In this document: positions 21,721 through 41,033 of the stretch, one piece after another
How positions within the stretch are numbered: the stretch's first letter is position 1
How the letters are laid out: every line of letters starts with the position of its first letter
Assembly: GCA_900155495.1 (NCBI GenBank)
Contig: FTLJ01000401.1
Span: forward strand, 1 to 64,000
Reading direction: 5' to 3'
Origin: Porogramme epimiltina
Taxonomy: Eukaryota > Basidiomycota > Agaricomycetes > Polyporales > Polyporaceae
DNA: 64,000 bases
Notes under the pieces: model-generated
What the model saw: only the letters and a program-made list of their open reading frames with translations
Databases searched by the model: none
What the model was told of the DNA's origin: nothing
Position numbers and translations under genes: made by a program

Positions 21721-22416
21721 CGCACGCCGGGCTCGTCGCGCTCGAGCGTCGCGTCCGCGTGGCAGAGCGCGAGCTGGAGCAGGTACCGCAGGCAGTGCTC
21801 CGCGTGCGTCGCCGCGTGCGCCCCGCGCCCGCCCGCGTCGGTGCGCGCGCGCGTGGCGACGGCGACGCGGAGGGTGTCGAGGCAGTGGAGCTGGTGCACG
21901 ACCGAGACGAGGAAGGTGCGGCCGTGGGGGTCGGGGGTGCCTGTGGCATTGGACGCGTTCCGGGGTGTTCCGCTGCGGTCGGGGTCGGACGGGGTGGTGG
22001 GACCGAGGGTGACGAAGCCGTCGTTGGAGGGGAAGAGCGCGCCCCATTCGAGGTCCGCGTAGAGGCCGTGATGGGGCTCGCCGGTGGTGAGGATGTGTGT
22101 CGTTCTAGAGAGCGTCACGGGAGCCTGCGTCGGGAAGTCATCGCCGATGTATGCTGTAGTCCAAGGTAGACTTCCGTTGGTTAAAATGGCTGATGAGCGT
22201 GCGGATGAGGGACTTACTGTACTCTCGGTCTTGTGTTACCGTGGTGCACAACGCTGTGATGCTAGGACCGCCCGTAGGCATCACGTAGGGAAGGAGGAAC
22301 ACGTTGATGACGGTGACAATTACAGATGTGTACACCGCACACCGGATAAGATCCTTGACGGATTTCTCGTCGTTGTATATGGCTGACGCCAACCCTCGTC
22401 CTTGGCGAGGAACCAT
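21591..22416 (-). CDS. UstYa-type oxidase (DUF3328), copy 1
   Basis: A UstYa-family protein. Members are membrane-anchored oxidases that catalyse oxidative cyclisation or related steps on peptides and other metabolites in fungal biosynthetic clusters. Two exons, 22416-22218 and 22153-21591, give 253 aa. A single TM helix near residues 25-50 (CAVYTSVIVTVINVFLLPYV) is followed by YIGDDFPTQAPV, then GEPHHGLYADLEWGALFPSNDGF (shown in part). The family's two HxxHC motifs are present: HQLHC at 153-157 and HAEHC at 183-187, with RYLLQLALCHAD between the second motif and the conserved DGRWEHA near the end. The start ATG at 22416 is the first in frame before the TM helix. It converges on F-box copy 2. 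Confidence 0.85.
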
Positions 22417-24050
22417 GGGCTGAGAGGGACGTAGTGTGAGTACGGGGGTGTGGCGTAGACAACCATGATCGCATAATAAGGACCAGCAATTCACCAGGTG
22501 CCGTAGCTACTCAATCCCAACTCTCATCTTTCATGCGGACGCGGCGAACCCATTACCTGGGATGGATGTGGTCCGGCGGGCATCGCGGGGCTCCAGGTGG
22601 TGCGACGCCGCCGAGCACGAGCGCTGCCCGTCGTCGAAACGACACGAGGTGCTGCGCTACGAAGGCCTGGCCGTTTGTGGTCTGCGCGCGCCCGAGCTGG
22701 GGCGCGAGAGATACGCATTGCCCATCAGGTGGTGGATCTTCTTCGCTACCAGCTCCGACCGTCGAGCAGGACGTGGGTAGCCAGCTCAAGGAACAAGAAG
22801 ACACTTGGCCTATTCTAGACAGAGTTTAGTAAATCAACACTAGCACGATTGGTTTAGGCTTGTACTTACTATTTATACTACCGCGCACACAAACTATGTA
22901 AGCATCGGCGGAGAGAAGTTGAGAAAGGCATGCCCCCTTTGTTGCATAAGTACTACGAGTACCGAGACCAGCCTCCCCGGTGCGTCCGGCCTTACGGCAG
23001 GTGCATCTGTACCTCAAGCCCTGTCAGTCTCCGAATCAGGCGGTAATTGATCAAGCTCTTGGCAAGAATACAAGGAACTCACCGCGCGCATATACCACCA
23101 CACTTTGGTAACACATTTGTACATACTACAAGCGTACGTAAGGGCATTCTGCTAGGCTGGTGGGGACATCATCGCATAGGCTCGGTCCAGGAGCCGCTGC
23201 CAGCACGGTGTGCGCTGGACTCAGCCGGGTCACATGCTAAATTTTGAGCGCTCGTCGCGGTCGTGGCCTCCCCGGCTGATGGAGCCGTGACTACTAACTT
23301 CAACACTGACACCTCTATACGGAAACTTAAATGGAGCGTCGGCTGGTATCCCAACCGGATGAGCGGCCACTCCGAGTCGTTCTAACCCATATTGCCGTGC
23401 TGTCACACCAGGTGCTGTCTTCTTTCGAAGTGTCCCTTTGTTGGATCTGAGCTCTGACATTTCAATAGGCTAGAAGTTGTGCGAAACGGCTCGGACCTAC
23501 ACTGCTCACGCGCAGAACGATCCGCTACCGACGTAGCGAGTCAAACCCAGCTACCTCCTGCGACCTGGGGGCACCGATATGACTGGTGTGAGCTGGGCTG
23601 ACCTGCAAAATTGCCGGGCCTTCAAGTTCGCGTTCTGCCCTGTGCCGGTCACAAGACGGACTACGTTGATCTCACGGACCCGACGTCTTCGGAGCTCGAG
23701 TGTAGAAACAAACAAGTCCGACTGGGCGATGAGAGCATAAGTCCTTCGCACCCCTGAAACACCGCGCTCGGTTTTCTGGGTAAACGAAGGTACGGAGACC
23801 CGCGCCCCGGACAGGCCGGCGACTTGAGCAAACGAAAAGACACTTATAGAACATATCCTCTCCGATCGAAGGTGGAGTTCGAGTGATGATAAGGAAATAC
23901 CGCACTGTTCTCTCTAGTTTTGATCGCCGGTCTCACCGGGACGTCATCAGTACTCACTTGTCACCAGCCTATTTGAAAGCCGCGTTGGAGTATTTAAGGC
24001 CGACAGGGAACGCACAAGGAGAACGCCCCCACCAACGAATCCCCTTTGCC
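22417..24050. other. Decayed stretch before the first peptide gene
   Basis: No intact gene. It holds a possible P450 fragment near 23230-23460 (listed separately). Frames at 22533-22829 are GC-rich and unsupported. A TATA-like box (tatttaagg, 23991) lies about 55 bp before the start of the first secreted-peptide gene. Confidence 0.4.
23230..23460 (-). pseudogene. Possible P450 fragment
   Basis: The minus-strand frame contains GIPADAPFKFPYRGVSVEVS, which resembles the segment before the heme loop of agaricomycete P450s (PVEFPLRN then EEVRSVRVP in the intact gene here). The reading breaks just after, where VPAGT and SILGANR would be expected. No heme motif follows. Its position at the left edge of the cassette array fits a worn-out P450 of an earlier cassette. 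Similarity is short, so this could be chance. Confidence 0.35.
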
Positions 24051-24395
24051 ATGCGACTCATCTTCCTACTATCCCTCCTCTTTCCTTTTGGAAGCCAAGT
24101 AAATGGGATGCCCGTCCCAGGTAGTGTCGCGGTTCTGGCGGTGTCCAGCACGAGGCCAGTCTGTTCCCCAACGAGCGTCGCCGCAGCCGACGCTCCCCAT
24201 GCCATGAACACTCCAGGTAGGTATGATTTCCCGAGATCCCCAGGGATAGGTCTCTACATCGTTGTCTCCTTGCTTGTTCTAGCTTCATCACTCTCTTCAG
24301 CGCCGCGGACATATGATGCTTTTCATTATCTGAAGATCAAAAAACCCCGAAATCCTTCAGACGACTCGATCTGGCACGGCACCGATCGGCGGTAA
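24051..24395 (+). CDS. Small secreted peptide precursor, copy a
   Basis: First of five small secreted proteins in the array; I know no family name. Two exons, 24051-24216 and 24283-24395, give 92 aa. A clean signal peptide (MRLIFLLSLLFPFGSQVNG) is followed by MPVPGS, matching the G-x-P-[V/T/I] junction found in all five genes. The first intron is in phase 1, as in the others, but is 66 nt, so the unspliced frame is also open. A nearby acceptor (24300) gives a slightly shorter product. Exon 2 is basic and contains SIWHGTDRR. A gtaagc donor overlaps the stop, so a third exon is possible. The gene converges on seven-TM copy 2. A TATA-like box lies 55 bp upstream of the ATG. Confidence 0.6.
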   Translation: MRLIFLLSLLFPFGSQVNGMPVPGSVAVLAVSSTRPVCSPTSVAAADAPHAMNTPGRYDFPRSPGIGLYIVVSLLVLASSLSSAPRTYDAFHYLKIKKPRNPSDDSIWHGTDRR

Positions 24396-24727
24396 GCGAA
24401 GATACGGAAGGTTTGTTCTTATTGTGAACTCCCCCATTGAAACATCTAATGACTAGACGGTACGATGTACAGCATCGCCATCGGAGCAGACTTCGCAATA
24501 CCAACGTCCGGAGCGCTCAAATATGAGGGACTACTGCTCGATGGGGAAGTACTACGTAGGTGATGTTTGATGATGGCACTCAAGAAGCGCGCAGAGCATT
24601 TTTTTGTATTCTAGTGATCCTGACAAAGAGTGGAGTCTAAACCTCCAGTGTACATCAGACCCAAACGTATTTTTATGTATTGAGAAAAACAGACTTTGTG
24701 CATGGCACAATGAACAAGATGCGTCTA

Positions 24728-25859
24728 CTACACAAGAGCGGCCCCCAGCCCAGGCCCATCGGTCGGGTCATAAAGAGGCGGGCCCTCACGGAATCGTATG
24801 GTATCTACGAAGGAATTCCTGGTTGCGCCAGTAGACTCCACCGAGAGGCCGAGGCCGACCCGAATGACGATGAGCGTCGGTGTTATTCCCTGTGTGAATA
24901 CGATGAGTAAAAAGTTAGGCATGCCTGACACTGAACAGTAAAAATAAGGGAGCTACGTACGTAAATCTGTAGGGCAATGGGCGCAACGACATCCTGTGCC
25001 GGATGGTCAAGAGAAATGAGGACGACGAGGACGAGCTGGACGGCGAGGTACAGCATTCCACTCTCGACGATGATCACCACGGCGGCCTGAGAGATCCGCG
25101 TTGTGCTTGGAAGGTTTGACAGTGAGCTCCCTCCCAACATGGTGATGTTCCTTATAGCATATAGAATGAGACTGGTCGACATTACGTTGGTGCATAGAGG
25201 GAGTACATAGCCCGCTATTTGGAGCGGAACAAACGCTGCTGGCTCATCCGGATTCTCAGGGGAGAGTGTGAGGGCGATATGCACGACTCCGCCGATGCAT
25301 GCTACGAAGGGACATTAGGAACTAGGGCTTGTCGTGAACATGAAACGTTTACCTAGGCCACCGAAAGCTGTGAGAGCGGGGAGTAGAGCGATCCAATGGT
25401 TTCTTTCCCATATAACCCAGCAACGGTATACCAAGATGACGTCACCCAATAGATCGCAAACTGAGAGCATGATATTCGCCCCGATAACGATGTTTGTCGT
25501 ATCGCCGAAGCCTTCTATGTTACCGACAGCCTGGAAGGTTTGCTTTGAGCGTTAGGATAAATTGACGCGATGAATGCTGCGGGTGAACTCACTATTTGCA
25601 TATAGAAGTGATAGAACTCCAGCACAAAATGAGCGGTGCAGGTCGCGAATAGAATACAGCTGACGACATTGATAGGTACATTGACGGTACCTCTCTTCTC
25701 GCGGCGGGAAAGTACCCAGATGGAAAGGCTGAACAACACGACATATGAACCTATGTGAGCGTGTTAGATACACGATAGGCAAGAGTAAGGGAGCAACATA
25801 CCCCAGAGTATGGCTTCACAGAGGAATCCTATTAGTGTCGATAAGTGATCTGTGAGCAT
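24728..25859 (-). CDS. Seven-TM membrane protein, copy 2
   Basis: Five exons: 25859-25802, 25750-25593, 25530-25353, 25301-24961 and 24889-24728, giving 298 aa. The family pattern is complete: LIGFLCEAILWG, FATCTAHFVLEFYHFY, MLSVCDLLGDVILVYRCWV, VPLQIAGYVLPLCTNVMST, VVIIVESGMLYLAVQLVLVV, HPAQDVV and YGITPTLIVIRVGLGLSVES. The loop after TM3 reads WERNHWIALLPAL. Seven hydrophobic helices and a short cytosolic-looking tail suggest a plasma- or endomembrane protein. A TATA-like box (25931-25936, read on the minus strand) lies about 70 bp upstream of the start. The peptide gene a lies convergently 332 bp past its end. Confidence 0.83.
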
Positions 25860-26539
25860 CGTGCATAGGGCTTAAGCGTGTTGTCGGGAGGAGTGGATTT
25901 GATAGTCGGGGTATGTGTCGAGGTGTCAGTTATATACGAGGAACCCCAGGGTGCGATGCATCGTACTACGAAAGACTCGTCCACAGCTCCTCTCGGACAT
26001 TAAATCGGGATGTCGTGCCGACTATGAGCAGAGGAAATCGTGTCTGTTTGAATGGTTAAACGGACACAATCAAAAGAAGCCTTGAATGGACGCCCCTCAG
26101 GCATTGCATCCAATTTTCACCAAACTGCGGGGGAAATGGTTTCAGACCACTCTTCTCTCGGACTGATGGGACGACATCGTATATGACGTCAAACCATCAT
26201 GCACTAGTATAAGGTACGGCGTTAGCCACATGACCACCTTCGACGTTGGTTAAACATTGAACCATCACTGGGGTCGTGTTTGTCGTGCTATGAGATATTG
26301 CGGAAACTGCAGTAGCTGGTAATTCCGCAGAGGCGGGACATAGTCAACCTCGACAACATGACAAACCACATCTCACCTGAGATAGACGCAGTCTCAGAAG
26401 AGCCTGCGTGAAACAATGCCATCGTGAACGGTAGCTCCGGGTGTGGTTGCATCCAAGAGCGACCACTGCCAGTGGGACTATCCTTAGAAAATAATGCATT
26501 GGTCGACGGTACACATGCCCCATGCAGTAAAGAGAGCTT
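25860..26539. other. Spacer between seven-TM copy 2 and a P450 relic
   Basis: Promoter side of seven-TM copy 2, including its TATA-like box at 25931, then about 550 bases in which I see no gene. Confidence 0.4.
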
Positions 26540-27150
26540 CATTCCAATAGATCCTTCGTAGGTAAACAGACTACTGTAAGTGTTTGCTTACAAGTGCTCT
26601 CCCGACACGACTTGTGGAGTCTTGGGGTCCCCGTGCAACTCGCGCGAACAACCAGAACCCGAAGGCTGTCGACTTGCCAATATACCTCCTTTCGTATGCC
26701 GTTCCGGTGGACCGCGGAGTTGGGAGTAAACCGCAAACAATGCAGACGACACTTGCAGATCTCCGCCTCCGCAAACTTGAAGCCGATGCATGCACGGGCC
26801 ACTCCCAAAAGACATCGATCCTGTGGAACCACATGTCAGCCCCGGCGTTCGCGGCCCTGAGCCGGAAATCCTCACGCATGCATGGACGTCAGGATGCTTT
26901 ACCTTGTCTACCTGCTGGCCTACTTTGCCCCTGCCGCTAGCGCGACGTCGAGGCTTTAACCAATTGCGACCCGCCCGATGCGCCTGCAGGAAGGAGTAAA
27001 CATTCGGAACGCTATACCTTCACTCCGACCTTGTGCGGTTCGCGCCGACGATGAAGGCCACGACGCTGGCGTACGCAGGGGCGCGCACCGCAAGGGCCTT
27101 CCTGCCCGTAGCATTCTGAAGCGGAGGAAACTATATCCTTCATAACCCTG
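26540..27150 (-). pseudogene. P450 pseudogene (heme-domain end)
   Basis: A broken copy of the last exons of the P450 at 37804. Three pieces match in order on the minus strand: VVAFIVGANRTRSE (intact: VVISILGANRNKAV) near 27050, RACIGFKFAEAEI including the heme cysteine near 26800, and RKEVYWQVDSLRVLVVRA near 26670 (intact: RKEIYWRIDGLQVPVVRE). The glycines before RACIG are lost (CLLGVARACIG) and frames change between pieces. Upstream exons with the I-helix and ExxR are not found. Confidence 0.82.
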
Positions 27151-28761
27151 CGAGCGCAGGGGAGGCGTCATCACCGTGTATGAACCAACTCACGAAAGTG
27201 AGAGAGGGAGTGTGTGTGCGTGTGACTGAGCAGCATGTATATAGGCGGACACGTGCAGAACCGTGTAGTCGGGGGAGGGGCAACGCATTCTGGCACACTT
27301 TACGTGTAGCTTGTACAGTACGGAGATGTGTTGCGGGAAGATTGTGGGAGAGAGCGAAAACAACATGCGTGTGCCGCAGTGAAGAAGGAGAGCGAGGGGG
27401 GTAGTGGCTGTTCGAGGGCCACAAAACGCAAATCATACCGAATGGGTTATGATACTCTCACCTATAGACCCACTCATCTCCTCCGCTGAGTTTCCAAGCC
27501 CTGTATACCGTCCCCGGTCATACCAGCCCGTGAAGATGTTGTTAAGCGCGAGTCACTAGGGGGTGTCTTGGATGTGAGGTTTCTTGCGTTCTAAATGATG
27601 TGGGCGCCATGTTGTTGAGTTAAGTGTGCTGGCCGAGTTTGCGTTGACGTTATGGCGGCGGAGGTACGAGAACAATGGAGCAGAGAGGAGAGAATAGTGG
27701 CCGTCACCAAGCGCCCTCACCCTCACCCTGCAGATCCTCATGCACTTATACGGCGCCTATAGCACCTGATGCGATTTGCATGGACAACGCTGAGGTACGA
27801 CAGGCTAACTACTTAGTATGTGGCAATGCAGGCTGACTTCCTCTTAGTTAACTCCTGGAGTTCTAACTTCTGAGTAGCAGCGTACGGCACGAAGGTGATG
27901 CTCAGCTGTGCCGGGCGCTATACCCCAGTCTTCGGCTCACTGCACTGCCTGGCAGCGCCCCCTCTCACACTTCGAGCCTACCACCAGCTCCCGGCTGCGA
28001 ACTTGTGGCTCACGCCCTCAAACAGTCCACCTCATGTGTAAAACGCCACGGCACACGACATGCTTCTCAAGTTTGTGCCCCTTCTCCTTTGCGGATATCC
28101 AGTAGGTCTCCGTGTACGCCCACGATCTGAGGACGCATCAATTGACAGAAGAGGCAACTTGGAGCGGCTGACAGAGGTTCGGATTTGAGCCCGTGCCGCA
28201 CCGTGCGAAGCCATAACGGAGCACAGCACGTACGCGATTGAGATCTCGTCACCTACCGAAATCGAAGGCATAGGATACAGCCATACGCAGCGCGAACTTC
28301 TCAATGTGCTGTGAACGTGACGTTCCCAGCATCTGCGCGCGAACTTGGAAGGTCGACTAGTCAAGTTCCAGATATATTCGCTGCGGGGTTTAAATTAGAA
28401 CTGAGAACTTGATAGACGTCGAGAACTCCGCATTGCTCTCTACTGAGACGATTGAAGCGGTTATAAGTATCCTATTTTACCTCTATGATACCATAATGCA
28501 ATTGGATGTCGGAGAGGGATGATAAACCGTCTGGGTGAGATCCCGTCTTTGTACCGCAGACGCTGAACTCATAGCCCTTTCATAGCTTGCCTACACAAAT
28601 AGCCGCTGCACTTTGATTCCGCCTGCGTCATTGAACTGGAATAGTAACTATATCCATCCGTCTCACTAGGTTTCTGATCTGATTTATCTGTGGACGTTAG
28701 CGTTATAAAATATCTCCTGCATGTCTTCGAGCTGCTCACACCTCCCCAGTACCACTTCAGC
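27151..28761. other. Spacer before peptide gene b
   Basis: No gene recognised. A GT-rich microsatellite-like run lies at about 27206-27225 (gtgtgtgtgcgtgtg). A TATA box (tataaaa, 28704-28710) lies about 55 bp before the next peptide gene. Confidence 0.4.
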
Positions 28762-29226
28762 ATGTTACACCTTCAAGTTCTCCTATCGTTCCTGTCTCTT
28801 GTCCCAATCTTTTGCGCTTTTGGAATGCCTACCGGCCTACCTTCGGCTGTAGACGCAACGTTAACGGCAGGAGCTGCGTCCAATGAAGTGCCAGCACCTG
28901 GCATGCTGCTCCCCACTAGTAAGTGAAAGTTCTTCTGAGTGCCGTCATACGATACCCACGACGAATGTTGTAATTGAGGGATGCGAGTGTATAATCACCA
29001 CACAAGCACTGCGTACTCCACCAGCACTCCGAGTCCCGAGCCCAGTGTCAGAGTAGACACCACCGCATGGATCTGGCGCTCTGGCAACTACGACTATCAG
29101 CACTCGGAACCTCAAAGCACTGGCCCCGAGCGTCTCCGATCTCAAGAGATTTCCTCTTCGATGAAGTGCGTACGGTGTTTTAATACTGTTGTTGAGAGCC
29201 TGATTTTCAACGACAGTCACAGATAA
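28762..29226 (+). CDS. Small secreted peptide precursor, copy b
   Basis: Best model has three exons: 28762-28918, 29057-29165 and 29223-29226, giving 89 aa. The signal peptide MLHLQVLLSFLSLVPIFCAFG is followed by MPTGLP, the shared G-x-P junction. Intron 1 is phase 1 as in the sister genes. Exon 2 starts at a tag acceptor (others nearby hit a stop) and contains TTAWIWRSGNYDYQHSEP. Exon 3 would hold only the last base of a Lys codon and TAA, the same arrangement as in copies d and e. The gene converges on seven-TM copy 3. A strong TATA box lies upstream. Exon 2's acceptor is the least certain point. Confidence 0.5.
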
Positions 29227-29765
29227 TCCTGCCATTACCCTATAGTATAGATGCCGCTGCCTATTTTTCTTCTGACTTGTGTTGTACTCGAATGAGAAAG
29301 TGTATCTATTTAAACAGAGCATGATAAATCGTGACTCGAGCACGGACCGATGGCATCTGATAGATCAGGAGCAGTTCTTCTTGAGCGCAAACTGCTCGTA
29401 TATGACCACCAAAGGCAAGACGAGTAGTATGACTACGGAGTTGCTATTTTACTGAGCCTCAAGAAGTGGGGATGTAGTAATATCATGTAATTTGAACATT
29501 TGCAGGAATACAAGGTCTTGAACGGCTCTACGTGTTAAATAAGATCTCAAGTACTGGGAAATTTATCTGAACGGGGACGGCGGAGAAGGTCAAGCGGAAT
29601 ATTGAAGAGGGTGGGGCTCGTGCTATGTATTCAAACTCTAGAGGTTGAGCTCTGGAGGGAGCGCCTAGCGGAATTAGTGCCGCCACTCAACCCCGTAGAT
29701 CTATCATAATCATTTATGTATGTCAAATTCCGCTTTAGTAAATACTAAACATGCATGTCTATTGC
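29227..29765. other. Convergent spacer b / seven-TM 3
   Basis: About 540 bases between the ends of the two convergent genes. AT-richer than the genes, no open frame of note. Confidence 0.4.
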
Positions 29766-30901
29766 TTACTTTTCTGTAGCATTCTCATCCAGAGAAAACG
29801 CGGGCGATGCATCGGGGAGCCGCGAGTTGCGGCGAGGAGAAGCGACCACAAGAGTGGACTCTACGGCGACGCCAAGGCCGACTCGAATGATGATAAGGGT
29901 CGGCGCAATGCCCTAATACACGATGAACAAGTTTGTCAGCGTACGTACTAGAGTGATGCTCAAGGGGTAGGAGAGCGCTACCCACATATATCTGGACTGC
30001 TATCACAGCAATTATGCCTTGTGCGGGGTGACCGAGGGCAATGAGGATGACGAAGATGAGCTGTACGGCCAGGTACAATGACCCGCTCTCGACGACCATA
30101 GCCATGGCAGCCCGTGTGGCACGCGATGTGTACTGGAAAGTCTTCGTCGAGTTGTCGCTTGAAGCGGTCATCCTCCAGATGCCGTACAGAATGATTCCTG
30201 TCGCCATGATATTGGAACACAACGGAAGGACATATCCTGCTGTTTGGAGGGGAATGAATGCAGCAGGTGCGGCGCTCTCCGGAGAGAGAGATAAGGCAAT
30301 GTGGGCAACTATAATAATGCATCCTAAGATCATATTTCAGTGTCAACATGCGGCGGAGAGTAAAAAAGAAACTTACCGAATCCTGCAGCCGCCGAAAGGC
30401 CAGGTAAGACCACGACCCAGTAGTTTCTACCCCACATTACCCAACAGCGGTATACGAGGATAAAGTCTCCAAGGAGGTCGCATACGGAAATCATGAGGTC
30501 TGCTCCCAGTAACAGATTTGTCTCGAAGGCAAATCCATAGACATCACCCGCTTCCTAGAGCGATAATCTCATGATTAATTCAAAGGATCGAGACCATCTG
30601 AGAAACTCTCACCATTGCCACGTAGAAGTGGACAAATTGTAGAACGAAATGAGCTGTGCAAGAGGCGAAAAGAATACAGCTAGCGATGGCGATAGTGATG
30701 TTGGCATATCCCTTTTGTCGCGCACGGAATAGCAGCCGGAGAGAAAGAAAGAACAGTATAACGTATGCGCCTATTAAGTCAGATTGACATCGTTAAGTTC
30801 CAATTAGTGACACCTTTTGGTACAGTTGTTAAGTACTTACCCCAAAGGACGGCCTCACAGGCGAAGCCCATAAGTCCCGCGATGTGACCAGTAAGTTGCA
30901 T
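29766..30901 (-). CDS. Seven-TM membrane protein, copy 3
   Basis: Five exons: 30901-30841, 30770-30613, 30554-30377, 30323-29986 and 29912-29766, giving 293 aa. Motifs in order: LMGFACEAVLWG, FASCTAHFVLQFVHFY, LMISVCDLLGDFILVYRCW, IPLQTAGYVLPLCSNIMATG, AMVVESGSLYLAVQLIFVI, HPAQGIIAVIAVQIY and GIAPTLIIIRVGLGVAVES. Exons 2 and 3 have the family's fixed lengths of 158 and 178 nt. The minus strand carries CTATAAAATAG about 65 bp upstream of the start, a TATA box. Reading without the last splice gives a wrong, longer tail; the spliced tail is short and ends in FSLDENATEK. Function unknown. Confidence 0.83.
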
Positions 30902-32809
30902 GATAAGTATGGTGGAGAAGCTCGAAGTACGTGGGGTAGCTACCGGTCTGATCTCATAGAGAACTATTTTATAGCTGGGTATGGGGTTGGTTCTCAACAC
31001 CACGCACGCCTAGTTCTGTTGGTAGTCGTTGTGAAGTGAGGTCTGTGTATGCCTGAACAGCAATGAGAGACCGCAGTTCTCGTGGATGGGCTCATCTGAG
31101 ATACCCCCCTAAGCGGGACATGAATTATCTCGCCGACAATAAAGAGAGAGGCTATTTAAAGAGCGAGCTGGGCAGAAAGTTACGAAATGTCAGTCTAGAC
31201 TTGACAGCGGACAGCGGGGAACTTACTTCTAACCAACTCCGCAGACCTGAAGCCAATTCACACAGCCGCCACATACTGAGCCGCGATACGTAAGGCAAGC
31301 GTTCGCAGTCATGAACATTGTACATAGGAACCTACTTGGTGCGCGCATATCGGACGCCACGATACTACCTTGAATCCCGGCGCGCCCTCACTACCGGGCA
31401 CCGCCTTTTCTACAGCTACATCACATTCTCCGAACGCAAAGTTAAAATTTCAACGCTTGCCCACAAACCTAATGCCGGAAGGGGTAAGTCAGTGCTTAGG
31501 GCACCACAAATAGCCCTGTCAGTACAGCTTCGGATCCGCCAAAGATAGAGATCACGATAAACACGCCTTAGGTCGGACGAGTCCCGCATACACCTCGCTC
31601 GCGGCAAGACCTTGGCGGGAAAGAGCTTTATTCTTCATCGCACTGCGGGTTTGCGTTAGTGACATGCCCTAGCAAGCTATGAGGAGACAGGAGAACGAAT
31701 CGATGGAGATGTAGTAGTATACGTGTGCGGCGTCTTGTCTGATTGAATGCCTACTTAATTTTGCAGAATATGCTGTATGGCATGCCTTGCCGAGCTCCAA
31801 AATTTGAATCTCTAGCGAATCGGACGACGAAAGACGATGATTCAAATTCGGAGTAGGCTATGTGCGCGAACTGTTTCTCCCTCTTTCGCGGCAGGTAGTA
31901 TCCCTTTGGCTAGCTAAGAAGACAGAAACCGGGAACCATGTTAAGACTACTATCAATGCATGACGATAATTGGGGCCACTTACTGATAAACATCGAGGGA
32001 AGTTGCAACCGAAAAGCCTGCACCTGCCCTGAACTTCTCATCCAGCGCGCCTGGCCACGCCGATGGACACTATCTTGGCGCCGAGTGGGCCAATAACGTC
32101 ACTTGATCTAATCGCTATCTGCGGCATTTCTACCAAAGTAGTCTCACCGTCCTAATGGGATGTGTGGGCTTTCTCGCCGCGTTCGAAGTGGAATTGGATG
32201 TCTTACTACCTCGCATGACCTACGCCGCGAGCTGACCTGTTTTCCGGTCTCTCTATCAGCAGTGATGACTGGAGCTGTACAGCAACGGTCCTAACAGCCT
32301 CAGTCTGGTTGCTACAACACGCTAATACATACTATGCTCGGGCCGGGCTTGTCTAGCGCCCACACTGATGGGCTTCCATGGGGCAGCATTGTGGGTCCTA
32401 GACATTAGATCAACGTCACGGACGAACATAAAAGTGTTACGTGTGAAAAACTGTAGTAGTATGTCTCCTCGCTACTTCAGCATGCTGTACCGTCGCTCCA
32501 GACATCTAATAGTTAGTCGAGCTTAATCATTATATCCTTGTGTGAGGTCTCGCTGTAATGGCCGCCAGGCCTTACGCACCTCACGGGCTCTCTAGATTAG
32601 ATTTGTCCGCGGGTTGGCATGGGGGTTTTTGTTTAATGACGATGGTGACCACATGTAACGTAGGGTGTTAAACTGGTGAACTACTCGTGTACATTGCCGG
32701 AAAAGACAGTCGTCATGTATGCAATGATTTCGGACGACCCCTCCCATCGCACTCGCAACACGCAGGAGGCTGGGAGTACTGAGTGGAGCACTACGACCAA
32801 TTAATGCCT
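30902..32809. other. Decayed DNA after seven-TM copy 3
   Basis: TATA box of seven-TM copy 3 at 30964-30974, then no intact gene. A short P450-like piece near 31490-31610 is listed separately. From 31.65 to 32.8 kb all frames are broken. Confidence 0.4.
31490..31610 (-). pseudogene. Faint P450 relic
   Basis: On the minus strand GVFIVISIFGGSEAVLTG aligns with GTNVVISILGANRNKAVWG of the intact P450, preceded by a weakly matching arginine/valine-rich stretch and a stop. Nothing else of the gene is visible. Its place, just behind seven-TM copy 3, is where the cassette pattern predicts a P450. Alone the match is thin. Confidence 0.4.
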
Positions 32810-33065
32810 AAGTAGGGTCATGACAAGGAAGAACTGGACAACGGTGTACAAAAGACTGCTCTCGCAAACTATGACCCTCGCGAGCTGAGGCATGCGCCAC
32901 GTTGATGGAATGGCTGTCGCGCGGATCCACCATCCTCCAGTAGCATATACCACTTCCACAGCTGCTTTGAAGGGAAGTAGGCATGGCGACCCGCTCGGCT
33001 CCAGGAGCGAACAAAATGGCGACTGAGGGGATACTCACTGGCATGAAAGGTTAGAATGAGCATAC
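32810..33065 (-). pseudogene. Seven-TM family relic (exon 4 region)
   Basis: The minus strand encodes QLARVIVCESSLLYTVVQFF, which aligns with RISQAAVVIIVESGMLYLAV and its continuation in copy 2. In the same frame upstream, LLPFKAAVEVVYATG corresponds to the VPLQIAGYVLPL segment. The loop between them is degraded, and the flanking exons 1-3 and 5 are not found. The stop ctta follows soon after. This is a sixth minus-strand member of the family, now dead, and it lies directly beside another P450 relic. Confidence 0.6.
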
Positions 33066-33168
33066 TGCGGGGCCAAGCAAAGGGCTTTCACCACATCCGC
33101 CAATTGCAATGAGTGACTTCTTCAAACGCGAGGCCACCCGCGATAACGTGATCATCAGAAAGATTAGA

Positions 33169-33360
33169 CTAGTTAAAGCTCGCACCTAAGCCCTTGCCAT
33201 TTCGGCCGATGATGGAGATCACGACGATCGTCACAACCCTGGGGCGGACGTGCACCACACGCCTTTCCTCGTCTGCGGTATTCCGGAGCGGAGATATCAC
33301 AAGTAAGACCATATCCCTTACAGGACTGCGTGGAAATAATGTCAGCGACGCGTGAGGGCT
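33169..33360 (-). pseudogene. P450 relic (exon 9 region)
   Basis: The minus strand reads VRDMVLLVISPLRNTADEE followed by RRVVHVRPRVVTIVVISIIG. The intact P450 has TKDAVLPVEFPLRNAAGEE and RSVRVPAGTNVVISILG in the same order and spacing. The segment stops after RNGKGLG where NRNKAVWGDD should follow. No heme motif is present downstream. This is clearly a decayed P450 of the same subfamily. Confidence 0.78.
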
Positions 33361-34827
33361 AGCTAGAGGGGAGACAAAAACCAAAGGAGTGCTCGCAGCT
33401 GACTGACCATGTACGTCGGTAGGCGTATAAAAAGCCGTGTGGCTGAGAGAAGGAACGATAAACCCTAGTGTGTTTTGCATGTGGCTATAACTGTGTGGAA
33501 TCTGGCGCAGGGAGATGGAAAATCGCGGAAATGACACTTACGTGTCGTGATAAAATTGAAGAAGAGAGTGAAGAGGACAACACCTCTTTAAGGGCGACGA
33601 AGCTGCACCGAGTAGACAATAACATACTCACCCATGAAGCACCTCCTCCTTAACATCACTTTTCGGTCGTAGAGGCCAACGTAGTGGGGTTTGGCCGCAT
33701 GAATCATCTTGGAAGAGCGTTTTCTTGGTCTTGGGCGCGGGTTCACATGAATTTTGCGTTCCGTATCGCCGACGTTGGGGTACAAATTTGGGAGTATGTC
33801 GATGGTACAGCAGTGGGAGCACGATGGCACTGGTAGTGGTGAGTAGGGAACTTTGTTTAATGAATATGATAGATATGTATGTAGGGCCCCGGCGCCAGGC
33901 TTTACGCGGCAAACTATGTAGCCAGAGCCTGGTCACGGGACGCGTACCTCAGCTATGCGCACAGCTGCGGCGGCCTGCCCCAGGGGACTGCCTTACTGAC
34001 TCCCTCAGTGTCGTCAGTATCCTCAATGTGGTTGCAATTCTATCGACGGCGTTTCGCGCACGGAGGTATTGTGTTCGGTGAGTATGTCGTTGGCTGACTT
34101 CTTCTACTTGCCTTCGGATGGTCTACCAGTGGCCTAGCTGGGACTTGTAATTGTGAATCTCCGAATTCGTCCATAGAACAACGCTAGTGACCTCGTATTT
34201 AGAACCTTTACACCAGGAGACTAAGAGCTATATGCTCTAGCACACCAATAGTAGGTATGTAGCTATGCTCACCACTTACCACCTCTTCTAAATCCCCCGC
34301 CGGGGCCGCCTCAACTTTCTCTGGCAGATCCGATATCGCCAGAGATCGCGCCCACGCCGCCCATGCCGCATGAATGATCGCAATATGCAAGCTGACAGGT
34401 TTGAACAGTACGATCGTCCGTCCCATATGACCGTAGGCAAGAGGAACGAGCTTCCGGATCGTGTGCCCACCCAGCTCACCCCACTTCCACTGATTGTGGA
34501 GATAAACAGGATACACAGTGTACGTTTGTGGTACCCTTTTGAAACTATATCAACCACAGAACACGGTATGGCAGTTAATCTCCTCCTGTGAACAGATTCC
34601 AGACTGTGATATTCGTCGGGGAACTGCTTCCCCCGAAGATCTCAGAAGTGGCGAGTGTTCGAACGTGGCCCTACATCTGTTCGTAGTAATCATTGTCCAA
34701 ATTAATTGGGATGGATAAGCAGAGAGGTCCAGAAACTCCGCAGGTGGATATATACATATATATGTACCACCCCATGTACGTCCGATTGTTTTTAGATTTC
34801 CCTCACTTACCATACGGCCTTTTGAAT
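33361..34827. other. Spacer before peptide gene c
   Basis: No gene I can name. A minus-strand frame at 34208-34516 is partly hydrophobic but lacks recognisable neighbours or splice partners. An alternating AT run (tatatacatatatatg, about 34748-34763) precedes peptide gene c by about 65 bp. Confidence 0.4.
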
Positions 34828-35219
34828 ATGCACTACCGCCTCCTAATCTTCTACTTTGCATCTACCCTAGCCGGCTGTTCATTTGGAGGTCCTGTCGACA
34901 CAGCAGCCTCCCCAGTGGCGACATCAACGGCCAAGACCACGCCAGAGGTTGGCCCGGTGCCAACGAGTGCTGCGTTGTTGCCTATCAGTGAGCGAAGCTT
35001 CTTTCGCAGATCTCAAAGCACAACCAATACTCAAGCGCACTATCCCATTATCTCCAATTAGACGTCATACCCCCCGCGGCCGACAGCGCCATCGGAAACA
35101 TACTCTCGCCGGTCAACAGCGCCGTTGAAGGCATATTCTCGCCGATCGAGGAACTTTGGCATGGGCCGAAGGGCTCACCCAAGACCAAGGGTCACCACAC
35201 GACTGCGACTCATCATTAG
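34828..35219 (+). CDS. Small secreted peptide precursor, copy c
   Basis: Two exons, 34828-34987 and 35062-35219, with a phase-1 intron of 74 nt, give 105 aa. The signal peptide MHYRLLIFYFASTLAGCSFG leads into GPVDTA, the shared G-x-P junction. A Thr/Pro/Ala-rich spacer follows. Exon 2 contains an internal imperfect repeat, SAIGNILSPVN then SAVEGIFSPIE, and then ELWHGPKG; the WHG tripeptide recurs in copy a. The C-terminus is Lys- and His-rich (KGHHTTATHH). No CaaX box. The gene converges on seven-TM copy 4. The presence of both parts of the repeat in one exon suggests it is part of the mature product. Confidence 0.68.
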
Positions 35220-35750
35220 CCGAGACTTCGGTGGATGCCTCGACTAGGCATGGTGCGTCCCACTTCACATCTGTGGTATTGCACTGTGGATGCAGAACAC
35301 TTAAGCAACATATTCTCAAAGGGCGACGGCGTGTGTTTAGCCTGTTTTCTTGCGTTTTATTTATGCGACTTTATGCTAGACTTCACGGGGAGAGCTATAG
35401 CAACTTCGATGCCGGGCATCGTTTTGTCTCGCCTCGGCTCGGATTGTAGAGGGGGAAGGGGAGGTGAAGGAGTTGCCAACATATGCCCTGTCGGCTCTTT
35501 GTATAGTAGTCACCAGCCCAGCCGGCAAGGAAAACACACTCCTTTAACAGCAAACGCCTTGGGAACAAATGAACTGAGCATTAGATGGTGCTATGGCCCA
35601 TCATATATGCTAATGGAGTACATCAAGAATGGAAATCCTCAAGAGTAGAAGCCCATGTCAAACACTCAAACTTTCGAAAGCGGACCCACAATACCGTAAC
35701 CTAGGACGTCGGGGTCACACTTATGCAGAGAACTGCCACGAAATCAGTGC
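35220..35750. other. Convergent spacer c / seven-TM 4
   Basis: About 530 bases between two convergent genes; only short open frames. Confidence 0.4.
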
Positions 35751-36899
35751 CTAGTGGTAGTACCATTGGTATGTCACGCACCTTTCAGCATCTCGGTTTC
35801 GAGAATGCACTGAAGTTGCAATGTAGGGCCATGGCGCAAGCCTAATGGCGTCGATAAAAGGCCTCGATCTTGCGGAGGCGCCTAGACCAACACGAATAAT
35901 GATGAGGGTCGGTGCGATACCCTAATACCGAGCGGAATGGTCAGCAAGAATATTAGCATCGCGCTTTGAACGTAGATGGCCGCGACGCACATATATCTGA
36001 ACCGCCATCACACCGATAATGCTTTGTGCAGGATGGTCGAGAGCGGTGAGGACAACAAGCACAAGCTGGACGACAAGGTACAAGGCACCGCTCTCCACCA
36101 CCATGACCATGATGGCCCTGGAGAGATGCTGTGTCTGCGGGATAATACTCGTGGGGCTATCATGCGAGGGAGTCGTCCTTCGGATGCCGTACAAGATAAT
36201 CGCCGTAGCCATTGCATTCGTGCACAGGGGAAGCACGTATCCTGCTGTCTGTAGTTGAAAGAATGCGGTAGGTAGCTCGTCGCTGGAGGAGAGTGTGAGG
36301 GCGATGTGGGCAACTACGGTGATGCATCCTAATTTAGAAAGGTGAGTATTCATGTCATAGAGAGGACGATAAAACCTCACCAAATCCTGCAATTGCGGAA
36401 AGACTAGGTAGCAATATAACCCAGTAGTTCCTGTCCCATATGGCCCAACAGCGGAATATAAGGATGACATGTCCAAGAAGGTCGCATACTGAAATCATCA
36501 GGTCCGCTCCTAGCAGTAAATTGTCTTCGTAGGCGTAACCATCGATATCTTCCGCTACCTAAATCGACGGTTTGGTCAGCCGGAGGGATCGACGTCGTCT
36601 GAGAGTGTTCTTACCGTTTCTAGGAAGAAGTGGACAAACTCTAAGACAAAATGTGTCGTGCAAGCAGCAAAGAGCACACAGCTAGTAACAGCGATAGGGA
36701 TGTTGGTATATCCCCTTCGCCGGGCGCGAAAAAGGACCACGAGAGAAAGGAGGAACAGTGTCCCGTATACACCTAGAAATACAATAGTCGCACATTCCGT
36801 TCAGCGATTGTTCTACAATACAACTGATGAGTACTTGCCCCAGAGGATAGCCTCACAGGGGAACCCCACAAGCGCAGCCACTGGGGATGTTAGTTGCAT
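35751..36899 (-). CDS. Seven-TM membrane protein, copy 4
   Basis: Five exons: 36899-36839, 36772-36615, 36558-36381, 36328-35991 and 35921-35751, giving 301 aa. Exons 1-4 have exactly the lengths of copy 3 (61, 158, 178, 338). Motifs: LVGFPCEAILWG, FAACTTHFVLEFVHFF, LMISVCDLLGHVILIFRCW, LQLQTAGYVLPLCTNAMATA (start of helix 5), VMVVESGALYLVVQLVLVV, HPAQSIIGVMAVQIY and GIAPTLIIIRVGLGASA. Intron 1 starts with gcaagt, a GC donor, where copy 3 has gtaagt. A TATA box (CTATAAAG on the minus strand, 36954-36961) lies 55-60 bp upstream. The C-terminal tail differs from other copies; a gtgcgt donor inside it leaves open another splice form. Confidence 0.8.
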
Positions 36900-37803
36900 G
36901 ACGAGGATGGCAGAGGCATGAGCTGGGGGCCAGTCCCATGTCATTGTGAGCCACTTTATAGGAGAGAAAAACTTGGTCAAACCTGCTTTCGTTGCGCTCT
37001 AGTTGTAACGATTGTTGGTCGAGATCTGTCCGTGTCCCGATCGAAGTCGTCGGGACGACAGCGTTCGAGGATCGTCACACCATGTCCTGGTCAGTATATA
37101 GTGACTGATCTTCCCGCTAGGCGAAACGAAGCCATTGCAAACGGGGACCTGTCAGTAGAAGTGTGGACATCAGTGGAGAAGTGGCGACAATAATCAGGTA
37201 ACCCTTACAAGGGCTAAACTCTCCCTACTAGGACGCCCGTAATCAACTTCTTCCTGGGCCATACAGTCACCCTGGTGACGGATAGTTGCGTGTGTGGCAT
37301 GAACGTTCAGTAGCACTGTCTGTGAATGGATTAGTGTATGCCAGACCCGTGAATGTGTACTTTGCCATCTTCTCCTTATCATCATGTCTCTAAGGGAACC
37401 TTCCTTGTACCGCCTCCAACATTGGAAGCGGACGGCAACAGCACCAATGAGTACCCTTTCTCGCATCTAACACGATACGTCACCACGATGAAAAGACCTC
37501 AACCGTCGATCTAGTCACACGGGTACCTCGGCCGCCACCCTCTCCTCGTGGTCGAGTGGCTGCCGCATGACGATCTTTAAGGCACGACATAGCCTAAAGC
37601 GTCACGTTCGTAGTCGGCCAATGACACGCGGTATATCAACAAGAAGATCTGTTGTATACAGTAAACACTTCAGCAGGATCTAATGTGCGAAGATACAAAT
37701 GGCACTGCACCGCATTCATTATACTACATACCGGGCCGTAAGTCGTAACACCCTGTGGTTGGCCATATATCGGGTGGCAGCGCCGTTTCTAAACTACACC
37801 TGC
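36900..37803. other. Spacer between seven-TM 4 and the intact P450
   Basis: Upstream side of seven-TM copy 4 (TATA box at 36954-36961), then about 800 bases to the P450 stop codon. I see no gene. Confidence 0.4.
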
Positions 37804-40305
37804 TCATGAAAAGTCGCCCTCCGTCACTAGTCTCACGACTAACGGGACTTGGGGCGTCTTGAAGTCGCCATGGGGCTCACGGACAACTGGAACCTGAAGG
37901 CCATCAATCCGCCAGTATATCTCCTTGCGCACACCATCTCCGTTTACTGCCGTAGGGAGAGCGAGATGCAGGTGGGACAACAGTGTGGACAACACTTGCT
38001 CTAAAGAACAATCAGTGGAAAGAAAGATCTGGCTCAGGATGAGCCACTCACTGATCTCCATCTCCGCAAACTTGAAACCGATGCAGGCACGACCGCCACC
38101 GAGGAAGGTCATCCTGTCAAACAACATCACATCAGCTTCAAGTCCGCAACCCCAAAACACATTTCGGAAGCTTACATGGTCGCATACACGCCAGGGTACT
38201 TCACCCCAGCCTTGTACCCCGGCGTGCCCTCCCCGCCAGGCGCCGTCTGCTCGCTCGCCTCGTCCCCCTCTCCGAACGCGAGGTCGAGGCTCCGCCCGCC
38301 TGCGAGCCCAACGCGCTCGCCGGAGGGGGTGAGCCAGCGCTCAGGGCGCCACTCGTCCGCGTCATCCCCCCAGACGGCCTTATTGCGATTCGCGCCGAGG
38401 ATGGAGATGACGACGTTCGTCCCTGCAGGGACGCGGACTGAGCGCACTTCCTCGCCGGCGGCATTCCGGAGTGGGAACTCGACGGGCAAAACGGCATCCT
38501 TCGTCGCGCTGCAGGGAAGTGTGCGTCAGCTACGTGCACAGGCGGACCACGAGGGAGAGAGGTGGTGGTGGAAGAGTGATGATACGCACGTGCGGTTGAT
38601 CATGTTCGTTGGCGGGTGCATGCGGAATGTTTCACGCACGACGGCGTCGAGATACGGCAGGCCGACGAGTATGTCGTAAGGTAGGCTGACGTCCTCCCAG
38701 TTTCCCTCGTCGCCTTGAGTGGCGGCGTATGCGCTCTTGGCCTTGCGAATGTCGGCGCGTAGACGTGCTTGTGCTTGGGGCTCGCGCGCGAGAATGTAAA
38801 GGATGCGACCAAGCGCAGATGTAGTTGTCTCTTGGCCGCCGAGGAGCATAGTGCTATGAACGACAGATTAACATGCTTGAAATGAGGGCGTTAAGTGGCA
38901 GTACATACTTGATCTGACCGGTGAGTTCAATGTCACTGAGACGCTCCTTCTCGGATGTCGACGAGTTGGCCTCCACTACCCAGCTAGGAGTGAGCGAGAC
39001 TGGGGGACCTTTTGCGAGAAGAAAATGCGTACGCATGATGGTCATCAAATCCCGCCTGCCATTTTTCGCAGAGTCCGTGGTACCTTGCTGCAGGGCGGTC
39101 CGTTTTTCAACGAGAATCTCCCGAGAGTACTTTTCCATGACGTATGACATTTCGCGGACTTCTCGTGCGGCGGGGAATGGGAGCCAGTCGATCATCTTGT
39201 TCCTCCAGTAAGAGGAGAAGTTGCGGACCGCCCACGGTACAAACGGACGAAGGAAGAAAATCTTGAGCCCCGTGTGACTGCCCATCTCTGGTTAGTCCCG
39301 AGGGGGCCAAGGCATGCGAACGAATGTACTCACGAGATATTGCGGATGACATGAACGTACTCGTGAGTTTTGTTGGGGTCCAATACGCCAAAGGAAACTC
39401 CAAGCACGGCCTGGCCGACGTACTCTATCGTCCCGCGTGCCATCCAAGGGAGGACGTCTATCTCCTTCGCGCCTGGTTCTCTCGTTCATCAAGGCGACTT
39501 GCGACTAGGAATAGCTGACTCACTTCCGTCTGTAGGTATCTCGGCTTTGATCCCTCGGAGCAGCTCGTTCGCAATTGGCTGGATCACAGGTAGGAGTTGG
39601 CGCATGTTTGCCAAGGAGAACACAGGGTTGAGCATCTTCCTTTGTTTGCGATGTTGTTCTCCTACGACGTCAATAGAGACATTAAAACGCGATGAGAGAG
39701 AAGTAGATGGGGAAACACACCGTCCGTTGAGATTAGGCCCTCGCCAAAGAGCAACTGGTTGGTTCTAATGCGCGATCATAAGAAGGCCGGTGAGAGCCCC
39801 GCGCTGTATGCCACTCACTTAAGAAACATCTCAGTCTCGTGGTAGACATCTTGGTCCTTTACAACAACGTGGTGCAGGGCGCGGGGGTCTGAAACGAAAA
39901 GCTGCTCAGACTAGACATCCCACAGTTAGGCAGTGTCATCCAGGAGGTCAAGGTTGACGTACCCCGAGCACACCATAGATCTTGATGACGCCTCCATATT
40001 CTCCAATTATCTTGAATGTGTAGTCGAACGAGTCCTTGAACAGCCTATGGAGGTTGCCTGTGGATAGGGAGATGCGCGTGAGGACGTCGAAGCCAGAAGA
40101 GAGGACTGCACGGAACAAGCGCCCACACTACCGCCACCACCTCCCCCACCCGTCGCCGAACGCTGCTAAACTCACCAGTCAACCAATGCTCCTTCTCTGG
40201 CCCCCTCACACTCGACAGCCTACTCGGAGTAGCGCGTCGCGACGTAAATTTCCACAAGGCGTACGCAACACCAAGAGTCCCGACCAACACCGAGAGCGAA
40301 GTCAT
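37804..40305 (-). CDS. Cytochrome P450 monooxygenase (intact)
   Basis: A membrane-bound heme monooxygenase that oxidises a small molecule or peptide; the substrate is unknown. Eleven exons keep frame: 40305-40176, 40057-39963, 39910-39819, 39764-39721, 39661-39524, 39472-39334, 39277-38909, 38853-38590, 38508-38176, 38113-38052 and 38000-37804, giving 620 aa. Visible landmarks are a short N-terminal hydrophobic anchor (VLVGTLGVAYALW), HRKQRKMLNPVFS (C helix), GGQETTT in the I-helix (341-347), ETFR as the ExxR motif (410-413), ERW in the PERF region, and the heme loop FLGGGRACIG with Cys545. All catalytic landmarks are present. Two tight choices were the acceptors at 39910 and 39277, set by homology of the joined text. 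It closes the cassette array on the right; four relics of the same subfamily lie to the left. Confidence 0.9.
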
Positions 40306-40727: not shown

Positions 40728-41033
40728 TTACCGCCTCTCCCCAGCTGCTTGAGCTAACAGCACCTCCAACCCATTCCCCGTGTCTGGTCTCGGGAGCGAG
40801 CGCGTGTCTACAATGTCGAGGCTCTCCTGGATGGCATGGTATATTCCTTTCAACCGTACCGACGCGAAGACCCAAGCAAGGACGTTCACGACGAGGAGTG
40901 CAACTATGCCACATACCAGGGCCGTGTGGCCCCGTTGCCGAGGCGGCTTCGCGGTGGGACCATCGCGTAGATGAGGGTCGTGCTCGTCCAAGTCGTAATC
41001 CTCATCTTTTGCGAGTGGGGTATATTCTGACAT
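40728..41033 (-). CDS. Small single-TM protein with DTR-LPRPD motif
   Basis: A single-exon 101-aa protein. The N-terminus is acidic and charged (SEYTPLAKDEDYDLDEHDP), then a basic PRQRGHT leads into one TM helix (ALVCGIVALLVVNVLAWVFA). After it come a short amphipathic stretch and DTRSLPRPD. A DTR-x-LPRPD ending is, as far as I recall, common in short agaricomycete membrane proteins of unknown role. The N-terminal arrangement also resembles the membrane anchor of UstYa proteins, but both HxxHC motifs are missing. It lies between the intact P450 (same strand) and a UstYa gene. The C-terminus could be altered by splicing to downstream frames. Confidence 0.55.
   Translation of the reverse strand: MSEYTPLAKDEDYDLDEHDPHLRDGPTAKPPRQRGHTALVCGIVALLVVNVLAWVFASVRLKGIYHAIQESLDIVDTRSLPRPDTGNGLEVLLAQAAGERR

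What the first reader, a model, noticed from the sequence alone, without database searches (positions are those of the whole stretch)
23230..40305. Repeated cassette: secreted peptide gene (+), seven-TM gene (-), P450 gene (-)
The order recurs: peptide a / seven-TM 2 / P450 relic (26.5 kb); peptide b / seven-TM 3 / faint P450 relic (31.5 kb); seven-TM relic (32.8 kb) / P450 relic (33.2 kb); peptide c / seven-TM 4 / intact P450. A further P450-like scrap lies left of peptide a. The sequence shows the order and homology; that the three parts work together is inference. If so, this would be a peptide-signalling or peptide-tailoring system spreading by tandem duplication, with the P450 dispensable and the peptide/seven-TM pair kept.
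Basis: partly seen in the sequence, partly recalled or inferred. Interest (0 to 1): 0.92.

Follow-up and report, generated by a model that had tools for sequence, protein, structure and literature searches.

The report
Mushroom peptide genes paired with receptor-like genes
A mushroom genome carries repeated pairs of a small secreted-peptide gene and a seven-helix membrane-protein gene beside enzymes of a family known to close peptides into rings, and the enzyme and membrane-protein genes also share a stretch of DNA in many other mushrooms, which points to an undescribed peptide-making and perhaps peptide-sensing system.

Summary
Peptides a-c and 7TM2-4 have complete gene models. P450 relics at 26.6, 31.4 and 33.2 kb are confirmed; the 7TM relic is marginal; the P450 scrap left of peptide a was not found.
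The 7TM family is linked to UstYa. Outside the window's contig, 7 of 30 7TM matches lie within 5 kb of UstYa, 0.1 expected; 0 of 33 matches of another 7TM family, DUF6534, lie on a UstYa contig. Among named genomes, 28 of 43 UstYa2 homologues share a contig with a 7TM homologue, 1.4 expected.
Two predicted 7TM models match the yeast peptide-pheromone receptor Ste2 best. Best reading: a UstYa-type modified-peptide cluster whose 7TM protein acts with the peptide, most likely as its receptor. The receptor step is inferred; conserved outward loops also allow a maturation partner.

The parts
15697..17053 (+). 7TM1, 373 aa, five exons; outlying clade with 7TM7 (C326:76.6-77.9 kb); no peptide candidate beside it
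21591..22416 (-). UstYa1 (DUF3328) gene, exons 22416-22218 and 22153-21591, N-terminal anchor, two HXXHC motifs intact
24051..24395 (+). peptide a, 92 aa, signal-like exon, phase-1 intron, C-terminus ..KKPRNPSDDSIWHGTDRR
   Evidence: exon-1 orthologue in a relative P0212, 53 of 55 residues
24728..25859 (-). 7TM2, 298 aa, convergent with peptide a
26644..27849 (-). P450 relic (pieces at 26.64-27.24 and 27.78-27.85 kb)
28762..29226 (+). peptide b, about 108 aa, exon 2 uncertain
29766..30901 (-). 7TM3, 293 aa, convergent with peptide b
31221..31624 (-). faint P450 relic
32819..32917 (-). marginal 7TM relic (33 aa, 48%, E 5e-4)
33194..33350 (-). P450 relic
34828..35219 (+). peptide c, 105 aa, ..EELWHGPKGSPKTKGHH..
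   Evidence: exon-1 orthologue in a relative P0211, 45 of 53 residues
35751..36899 (-). 7TM4, 301 aa, convergent with peptide c; first intron GC-AG
37806..40305 (-). apparently intact cytochrome P450 gene, many exons, I-helix GGQETT, K-helix ETFR, heme FLGGGRACIG
40764..41033 (-). first exon of a small single-TM protein with motif VDTRSLPRPDTGNGL; homologue in the C223 cluster and at C198
42113..42759 (+). UstYa2 gene, exons 42113-42239 and 42302-42759, two HXXHC motifs; homologues across Agaricomycetes
42971..44379 (-). 7TM5, 328 aa, convergent with UstYa2
48087..49347 (-). 7TM6, 327 aa, convergent with peptide e

Best explanation
This is a modified-peptide (RiPP-type) gene cluster of an Agaricomycete. 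Small secreted precursors, each with a signal peptide and one Trp-containing core near the C-terminus, enter the secretory pathway. There UstYa oxidases, and in one module a P450, oxidise or cyclise the core. The product leaves the cell and is recognised by the co-encoded seven-TM protein, a GPCR-like receptor whose closest known fold is the alpha-factor receptor Ste2. Tandem duplication of peptide/7TM/P450 units then produced divergent peptide-receptor pairs, the P450 being lost from most units. Shown here: the genes, their intactness, the duplication, the UstYa-7TM linkage within this genome and (by shared contigs) across species, and the predicted fold. Inferred: the enzymatic modification, the peptide being its substrate, and the 7TM being a receptor.
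Against: Across the family the extracytosolic loops are more conserved than cytosolic loops 1 and 3 (entropy 1.08, 1.15, 1.47 v 2.73, 2.96; cytosolic loop 2 is 1.17), the reverse of what ligand-diversified receptors usually show (recalled). In one search the C223 7TM, whose peptide has the same core motif as d and e, shows ratios of 0.90 and 0.98 with 7TM5 and 7TM6, so the low ratio does not follow core similarity in every pair; and 7TM5 is paired with d only by being next to it head to head. No recognisable GPCR family: STE2 in 1 of 61 members at E 0.17; Foldseek alone gives no E below 0.01. Three of nine strong 7TM family members show no convincing peptide beside them. The blind signal-ORF scan does not by itself enrich at UstYa loci: 10 candidates in 64 kb, 4 of them UstYa anchors, against 4 in 57 kb of control. 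Precursors lack repeated KEX2-flanked cores. No shared promoter word. No expression or product data.
Confidence: 0.46

Rival explanations
1. Same UstYa peptide cluster, but the 7TM protein works in maturation or trafficking: an ER/Golgi membrane partner that holds the precursor or the UstYa oxidase on the luminal side, not a receptor.
For: Linkage is shown more widely with UstYa than with peptides (7TM5 and the C99 7TM each lie convergent with a UstYa gene). Luminal-side loops and outer helix halves are the conserved part, with invariant or nearly invariant polar residues E16, H61, E65, H68, E84, D92, S96, D99, E211, Q220.
Against: Best fold match is a peptide GPCR; on C326 seven 7TM genes stand against two UstYa genes, though at C316 the numbers are two and two; 7TM matches also occur without UstYa, e.g. 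four at C428.
Confidence: 0.31
2. The 7TM protein protects the producer from, or exports, the peptide product.
For: Self-protection or transport genes are usual in natural-product clusters (established knowledge); one copy per peptide unit fits.
Against: No transporter or resistance family passes a Pfam cut-off; the listed fold matches are receptors and rhodopsins, which does not exclude others.
Confidence: 0.09
3. The peptides are not real genes, or not part of the system; only the UstYa-7TM linkage is meaningful and its substrate lies elsewhere.
For: Peptides a-c share no DNA similarity; the signal-ORF scan is weak alone; none convincing at C99; peptide exon-1 orthologues in relatives (P0211, P0212) come from close genomes whose upstream reading is alike too, so they say little about coding constraint.
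Against: Peptides d, e and C223 share signal exon, phase-1 intron and core motif on two contigs; five convergent peptide/7TM pairs.
Confidence: 0.09
4. A B mating-type locus: STE3 receptors beside CaaX lipopeptide pheromone genes.
For: Receptor-like gene beside small peptide gene, in tandem, in a mushroom.
Against: No STE3 match listed for 61 family members; none of the five peptide models ends in CaaX.
Confidence: 0.01

Closest known systems
Dikaritin RiPP clusters (ustiloxin, phomopsin, asperipin-2a; UstYa/DUF3328 oxidases)
   Same: Signal-peptide precursors encoded near UstYa genes, with a P450 in one unit; UstYa family assignment tested.
   Different: Precursors carry one core, no KEX2-flanked repeats; a seven-TM gene family is a recurrent partner and a small single-TM gene recurs in two clusters, neither described for dikaritins in the passages I read (PMC9769878, PMC7329392).
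Ste2 (class D / class I fungal GPCR, alpha-factor receptor)
   Same: Best structural match of two predicted 7TM models; presumed partner is a secreted peptide; N-out topology by charge.
   Different: No sequence-level membership (PF02116 in 1 of 61 at E 0.17); STE2 is reported only from Ascomycota (PMC12842992 passages); family genes lie near UstYa genes.
DUF6534 seven-TM proteins, proposed as new Agaricomycete GPCRs (PMC12842992, passages)
   Same: Agaricomycete orphan 7TM family; weak profile similarity in 4 of 61 members.
   Different: Best E 0.026; the 33 DUF6534 matches of this genome are on none of the UstYa contigs.
Pth11-like and class 12 GPCRs found in fungal PKS/NRPS clusters (PMC12842992, passages)
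   Same: Orphan 7TM receptors inside biosynthetic clusters, with the metabolite proposed as ligand.
   Different: Other receptor families; about 4% of those receptors, whereas here all nine strong members of the close family lie on contigs that bear UstYa genes.

Membership tests
UstYa (PF11807) | profile match above curated cut-off | tested here: met
   84.0 and 67.1 bits against a cut-off of 25
UstYa (PF11807) | two HXXHC motifs (recalled as defining) | tested here: met
   HQLHC and HAEHC in UstYa1, HQLHC and HFEHC in UstYa2
Dikaritin | precursor with N-terminal signal peptide | tested here: met
   hydrophobic N-terminus with a cleavage-like site in peptides a, b, d, e by a home-made rule; c scores 1.86 against its threshold of 2.3 and was not picked up
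Dikaritin | multiple core repeats flanked by KEX2 dibasic sites (PMC9769878) | tested here: not met
   no such repeats in the models of a-e by inspection; peptide a has a single stretch between KK and a terminal RR, peptide c two loosely alike stretches without dibasic sites
Dikaritin | UstYa gene near the precursor gene | tested here: met
Dikaritin | oxidatively cyclised product | not testable with these tools
   no chemistry available
Ste2 / class D GPCR | STE2 profile PF02116 | tested here: not met
   1 of 61 members, E 0.17
Ste2 / class D GPCR | Ste2-like seven-helix fold | tested here: inconclusive
Ste2 / class D GPCR | couples to a G protein on peptide binding | not testable with these tools
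   needs reporter assay
STE3/CaaX mating locus | STE3 profile PF02076 | tested here: not met
   not among the 22 families listed for 61 members at E <= 10
STE3/CaaX mating locus | precursor ends in CaaX | tested here: not met
   C-termini DRR, SHR, THH, SSA and NQD in the models
DUF6534 | profile PF20152 match | tested here: not met
   4 of 61 members, best E 0.026
Cytochrome P450 (PF00067) | profile match and heme-binding motif in the 37.8-40.3 kb gene | tested here: met
   56.8 and 30.4 bits in two of four ORFs tested (cut-off 22.8), 13.1 in a third, none in the fourth; FLGGGRACIG

The most novel reading that the evidence does not exclude
Mushroom-forming fungi run a second, non-mating peptide-receptor system: UstYa-modified, signal-peptide-borne single-core peptides sensed by a Ste2-like receptor family, encoded together and diversified as ligand-receptor pairs by tandem duplication, in a phylum from which Ste2 receptors are reported absent.
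Probability: 0.34. Interest if true: 0.93.

Novelty: new variant of a known kind. Interest (0 to 1): 0.8.

Why it matters
Umemura 2020 (PMC7329392, passages) found DUF3328 (UstYa-type) genes near 30% of ascomycete but only 6% of basidiomycete KEX2-repeat precursors and asked whether cyclisation hardly occurs there. Single-core precursors like those here would escape a repeat-based survey, so they offer a testable answer. The 7TM partners give orphan Agaricomycete receptors a concrete ligand hypothesis, one neighbour gene per receptor, that can be tested in yeast or Coprinopsis. If the 7TM proves to be a maturation factor instead, it is a new component of UstYa chemistry. Either way, 7TM-UstYa linkage gives a genome-mining handle for undescribed fungal peptides.

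Tried and rejected
Mating locus (STE3/CaaX): rejected on both features tested. Shared promoter words among 14 genes of the region: none beyond random windows. Blind scan for signal-peptide ORFs with a phase-1 donor: not enriched enough to count as evidence alone, and it missed peptide c and the C223 peptide (C223 was seen). Peptide at C99: only an implausible candidate. At C782 no 7TM match was found on the contig and no peptide was recognised in the DNA held, but the UstYa there lies about 3 kb from the contig end. P450 left of peptide a: not found. Peptide c as a query had no other place in the genome. PDB sequence search with the 7TM profile: no match to E 10. Rfam: nothing at gathering thresholds. 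Literature, judged from listings and abstract starts only: UstYa with G protein-coupled receptor gave 15 papers, by title none on fungal peptides; DUF3328 with GPCR gave one Colletotrichum paper; UstYa with Agaricomycetes gave one; the rows shown (20 of 388; 15 of 4,224) showed no 7TM-UstYa report. Only the open library was searched.

Weak points of my counts: the 7TM list holds 37 hand-entered midpoints with E up to 0.01, so some may not be 7TM genes (this dilutes the effect), and genome searches score only the best candidates. One search uses the 43 named rows of 90 UstYa hits (47 rows without a species name dropped) against the 120 listed of 229 7TM hits, identifies contigs by length and assumes 40 Mb genomes; 11 of the 43 have no listed 7TM from the same genome. 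Consecutive JGI-type tag numbers do not prove adjacency. The contrast was chosen. The 7TM1 row in the tree carries one extra residue from a splice junction that was set right.
Full report
What was checked first. The window is bases 1-64000 of contig C326 (93,056 bases) of an unnamed 41.9 Mb genome in 926 contigs. The named protein relatives of its 7TM and UstYa genes are Agaricomycetes, Polyporales prominent among them (orders recalled). Spliced models for the three seven-TM genes in the given range are complete, with the same five-exon plan. Three further members of the same family lie in the window: 7TM1 at 15.7-17.1 kb, 7TM5 at 43.0-44.4 kb and 7TM6 at 48.1-49.3 kb. A seventh lies at C326:76.6-77.9 kb. 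Substitution patterns indicate purifying selection: 7TM3-7TM4 dN 0.21 and dS 1.23, 7TM5-7TM6 dN 0.18 and dS 1.44. Peptides a, b and c each have a hydrophobic signal-like exon and a phase-1 intron. The P450 relics at 26.6, 31.4 and 33.2 kb are real, the 7TM relic at 32.8 kb is marginal, and the P450 scrap left of peptide a was not found. The P450 at 37.8-40.3 kb keeps its I-helix, K-helix and heme motifs and passes the Pfam cut-off in two of four ORFs tested.

Pfam finds UstYa (DUF3328) genes at 21.6-22.4 kb (-) and 42.1-42.8 kb (+), one on either side of peptides a-c. Both have complete models with two HXXHC motifs. Two more peptide genes lie at 45.3 and 47.3 kb, d and e, with alike signal exons (79% identical over 53 bases) and cores GALWEGSAHVAVSSA and GKLWANAAHVKVNQ. 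Peptide e is convergent with 7TM6; d stands head to head with 7TM5. A small single-TM gene lies at 40.8-41.0 kb (-).

An independent copy. Contig C223 carries, within 5 kb, a 7TM gene (+), a convergent small secreted peptide (-) with core GPWNLANHVVVDRA, a homologue of the small TM gene (-) and a close relative of UstYa2 (+). The loose pattern [LIVPM]W-x(3-5)-H[VI]-x-[VI] in the window and held loci returns these three peptides and three other matches, in L002, L007 and L019. The tight form [LP]W-x4-HVxV occurs twice in the window, at d and e, where shuffled windows average 0.035, once at C223, and once in the P450 locus L002, which I take for chance. Peptides d, e and C223 are therefore a family; a, b and c share with it the position, the signal-like exon, the phase-1 intron and an [LI]W pair in exon 2, but no DNA similarity.

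Linkage inside the genome. UstYa has only 19 matches in 41.9 Mb. The close 7TM family has nine strong members: seven on C326, one at C99 beside a UstYa gene, one at C223 beside a UstYa gene. A wider 7TM search, whose query is related to the close family by profile comparison (98% probability), adds places at C226, C293, C223:12.7 kb, C26 and C113 and strengthens C316. In all, 14 UstYa places were grouped; 10 have a 7TM match within 8 kb and 4 do not (C782, near a contig end, and three on C403). Leaving out the window's contig, 7 of 30 7TM matches are within 5 kb of UstYa where 0.1 is expected, and 5 of 21 7TM clusters. As a control, DUF6534, another 7TM family, has 33 matches, none on any UstYa contig.

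Linkage across species. No genomic context could be fetched for other fungi. The protein database gives contig lengths and names, and I used these as a substitute. Of 90 UstYa2 homologues, 43 come from named genomes; 28 of these share a contig with one of the 120 listed 7TM homologues, against 1.4 expected and at most 8 in 200,000 simulations; 32 of the 43 are in genomes with a listed 7TM. Tags are consecutive or nearly so in Ganoderma sinense (GSI_14644 7TM, GSI_14645 UstYa), Lanmaoa (12284, 12285), Neolentinus (1135376, 1135377), Hygrophoropsis (1081397, 1081399) and Taiwanofungus (002873, 002871). The linkage thus spans at least Polyporales, Boletales and Gloeophyllales (orders recalled).

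Receptor or maturation partner. Two observations pull apart. Over 61 homologues the outward loops are conserved (mean entropy 1.08, 1.15, 1.47) while cytosolic loops 1 and 3 are not (2.73, 2.96; loop 2 is 1.17), and many invariant or nearly invariant polar residues sit in the helices; that suits a protein with a conserved luminal task. Among the paralogues here, the outer half may follow the peptides: 7TM5 and 7TM6, beside peptides d and e with alike cores, differ at 15 of 125 outer and 34 of 115 inner positions, whereas 7TM3 and 7TM4, beside unlike peptides b and c, differ at 40 of 124 and 36 of 115 (Fisher p 0.017). The ratio 0.41 lies below the 5-95% range of homologue pairs at that distance (0.64-1.22); 1.03 lies within it (0.60-1.10). 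Against this, the C223 7TM, whose peptide has the same core motif, gives ratios of 0.90 and 0.98 with 7TM5 and 7TM6, and the contrast was noticed before it was tested. It is suggestive only. The fold favours a receptor; the linkage to UstYa and the loop conservation keep the maturation reading open.

Duplication history. The 7TM tree gives 7TM2,(7TM3,7TM4) as one clade (98/90) with an Epithele typhae protein as sister, 7TM5, 7TM6, C223 and C99 with another Epithele protein as a neighbouring group (92/91), and 7TM1 with 7TM7 apart. Together with the P450 relics in the same order and strand this supports tandem duplication of a peptide/7TM/P450 unit, with loss of the P450.

Comparison with what is known. 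Passages of PMC9769878 define dikaritin precursors by a signal peptide and multiple cores flanked by KEX2 sites; the second feature is not met here, although peptide a has one stretch between KK and a terminal RR. Passages of PMC7329392 report DUF3328 genes near 30% of ascomycete and 6% of basidiomycete KEX2-repeat precursors. Passages of PMC8893723 report 16 UstYa-like genes in Pleurotus, six developmentally expressed. Passages of PMC12842992 report STE2 receptors only in Ascomycota, propose DUF6534 proteins as new Agaricomycete GPCRs, and note GPCRs of other classes inside biosynthetic clusters. Passages of PMC13308352 repeat that class I receptors are only in Ascomycota. The searches listed under Tried and rejected showed no report of a 7TM family tied to UstYa.

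Verdict. The cluster is best filed as a new variant of UstYa-type peptide clusters, with a recurrent seven-TM partner. That the 7TM and the peptide belong to one system is likely. That the 7TM is the receptor of the finished peptide is my leading reading at just under even odds.

Noticed in passing
G000:C226:39.0-39.8 kb (-) and 49.8-50.6 kb (+): Two nearly identical 7TM genes (97% each to one query taken from the first) in inverted orientation, the first beside two UstYa genes: a recent duplication.
   Followed up: no
G000:C428:17-26 kb: Four 7TM matches in a row, one of them weak, with no UstYa match on that contig.
   Followed up: no
L062 (C316:29.5-37.5 kb): Two UstYa genes, two 7TM genes and a secreted peptide ORF (30816, -) with a phase-1 intron and an exon 2 rich in V and P with one W: another likely cluster with an unlike core.
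   Followed up: partly
C223:14/17 kb, C293:4/7.5 kb, C26:59/61 kb: UstYa genes in pairs of two unlike types, apart from the window's UstYa in the tree, like UstYa/UstYb pairs of ustiloxin (that comparison is recalled).
   Followed up: partly
window 17604-19127 and 19910-21384 (+): Two tandem F-box-like genes between 7TM1 and UstYa1, both just under the Pfam cut-off.
   Followed up: no
window 8489-9232 (-): Zn(2)-Cys(6) transcription-factor-like ORF near the left edge, just above the Pfam cut-off.
   Followed up: no
window 50805-53141 (+): HET-domain-like gene to the right of the cluster, below the cut-off.
   Followed up: no
G000:C198:26207-26488 (+): Second homologue (53%) of the small TM protein; C198 has no UstYa match.
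   Followed up: no
window 36773-36838 (-): First intron of 7TM4 starts with GC instead of GT.
   Followed up: no
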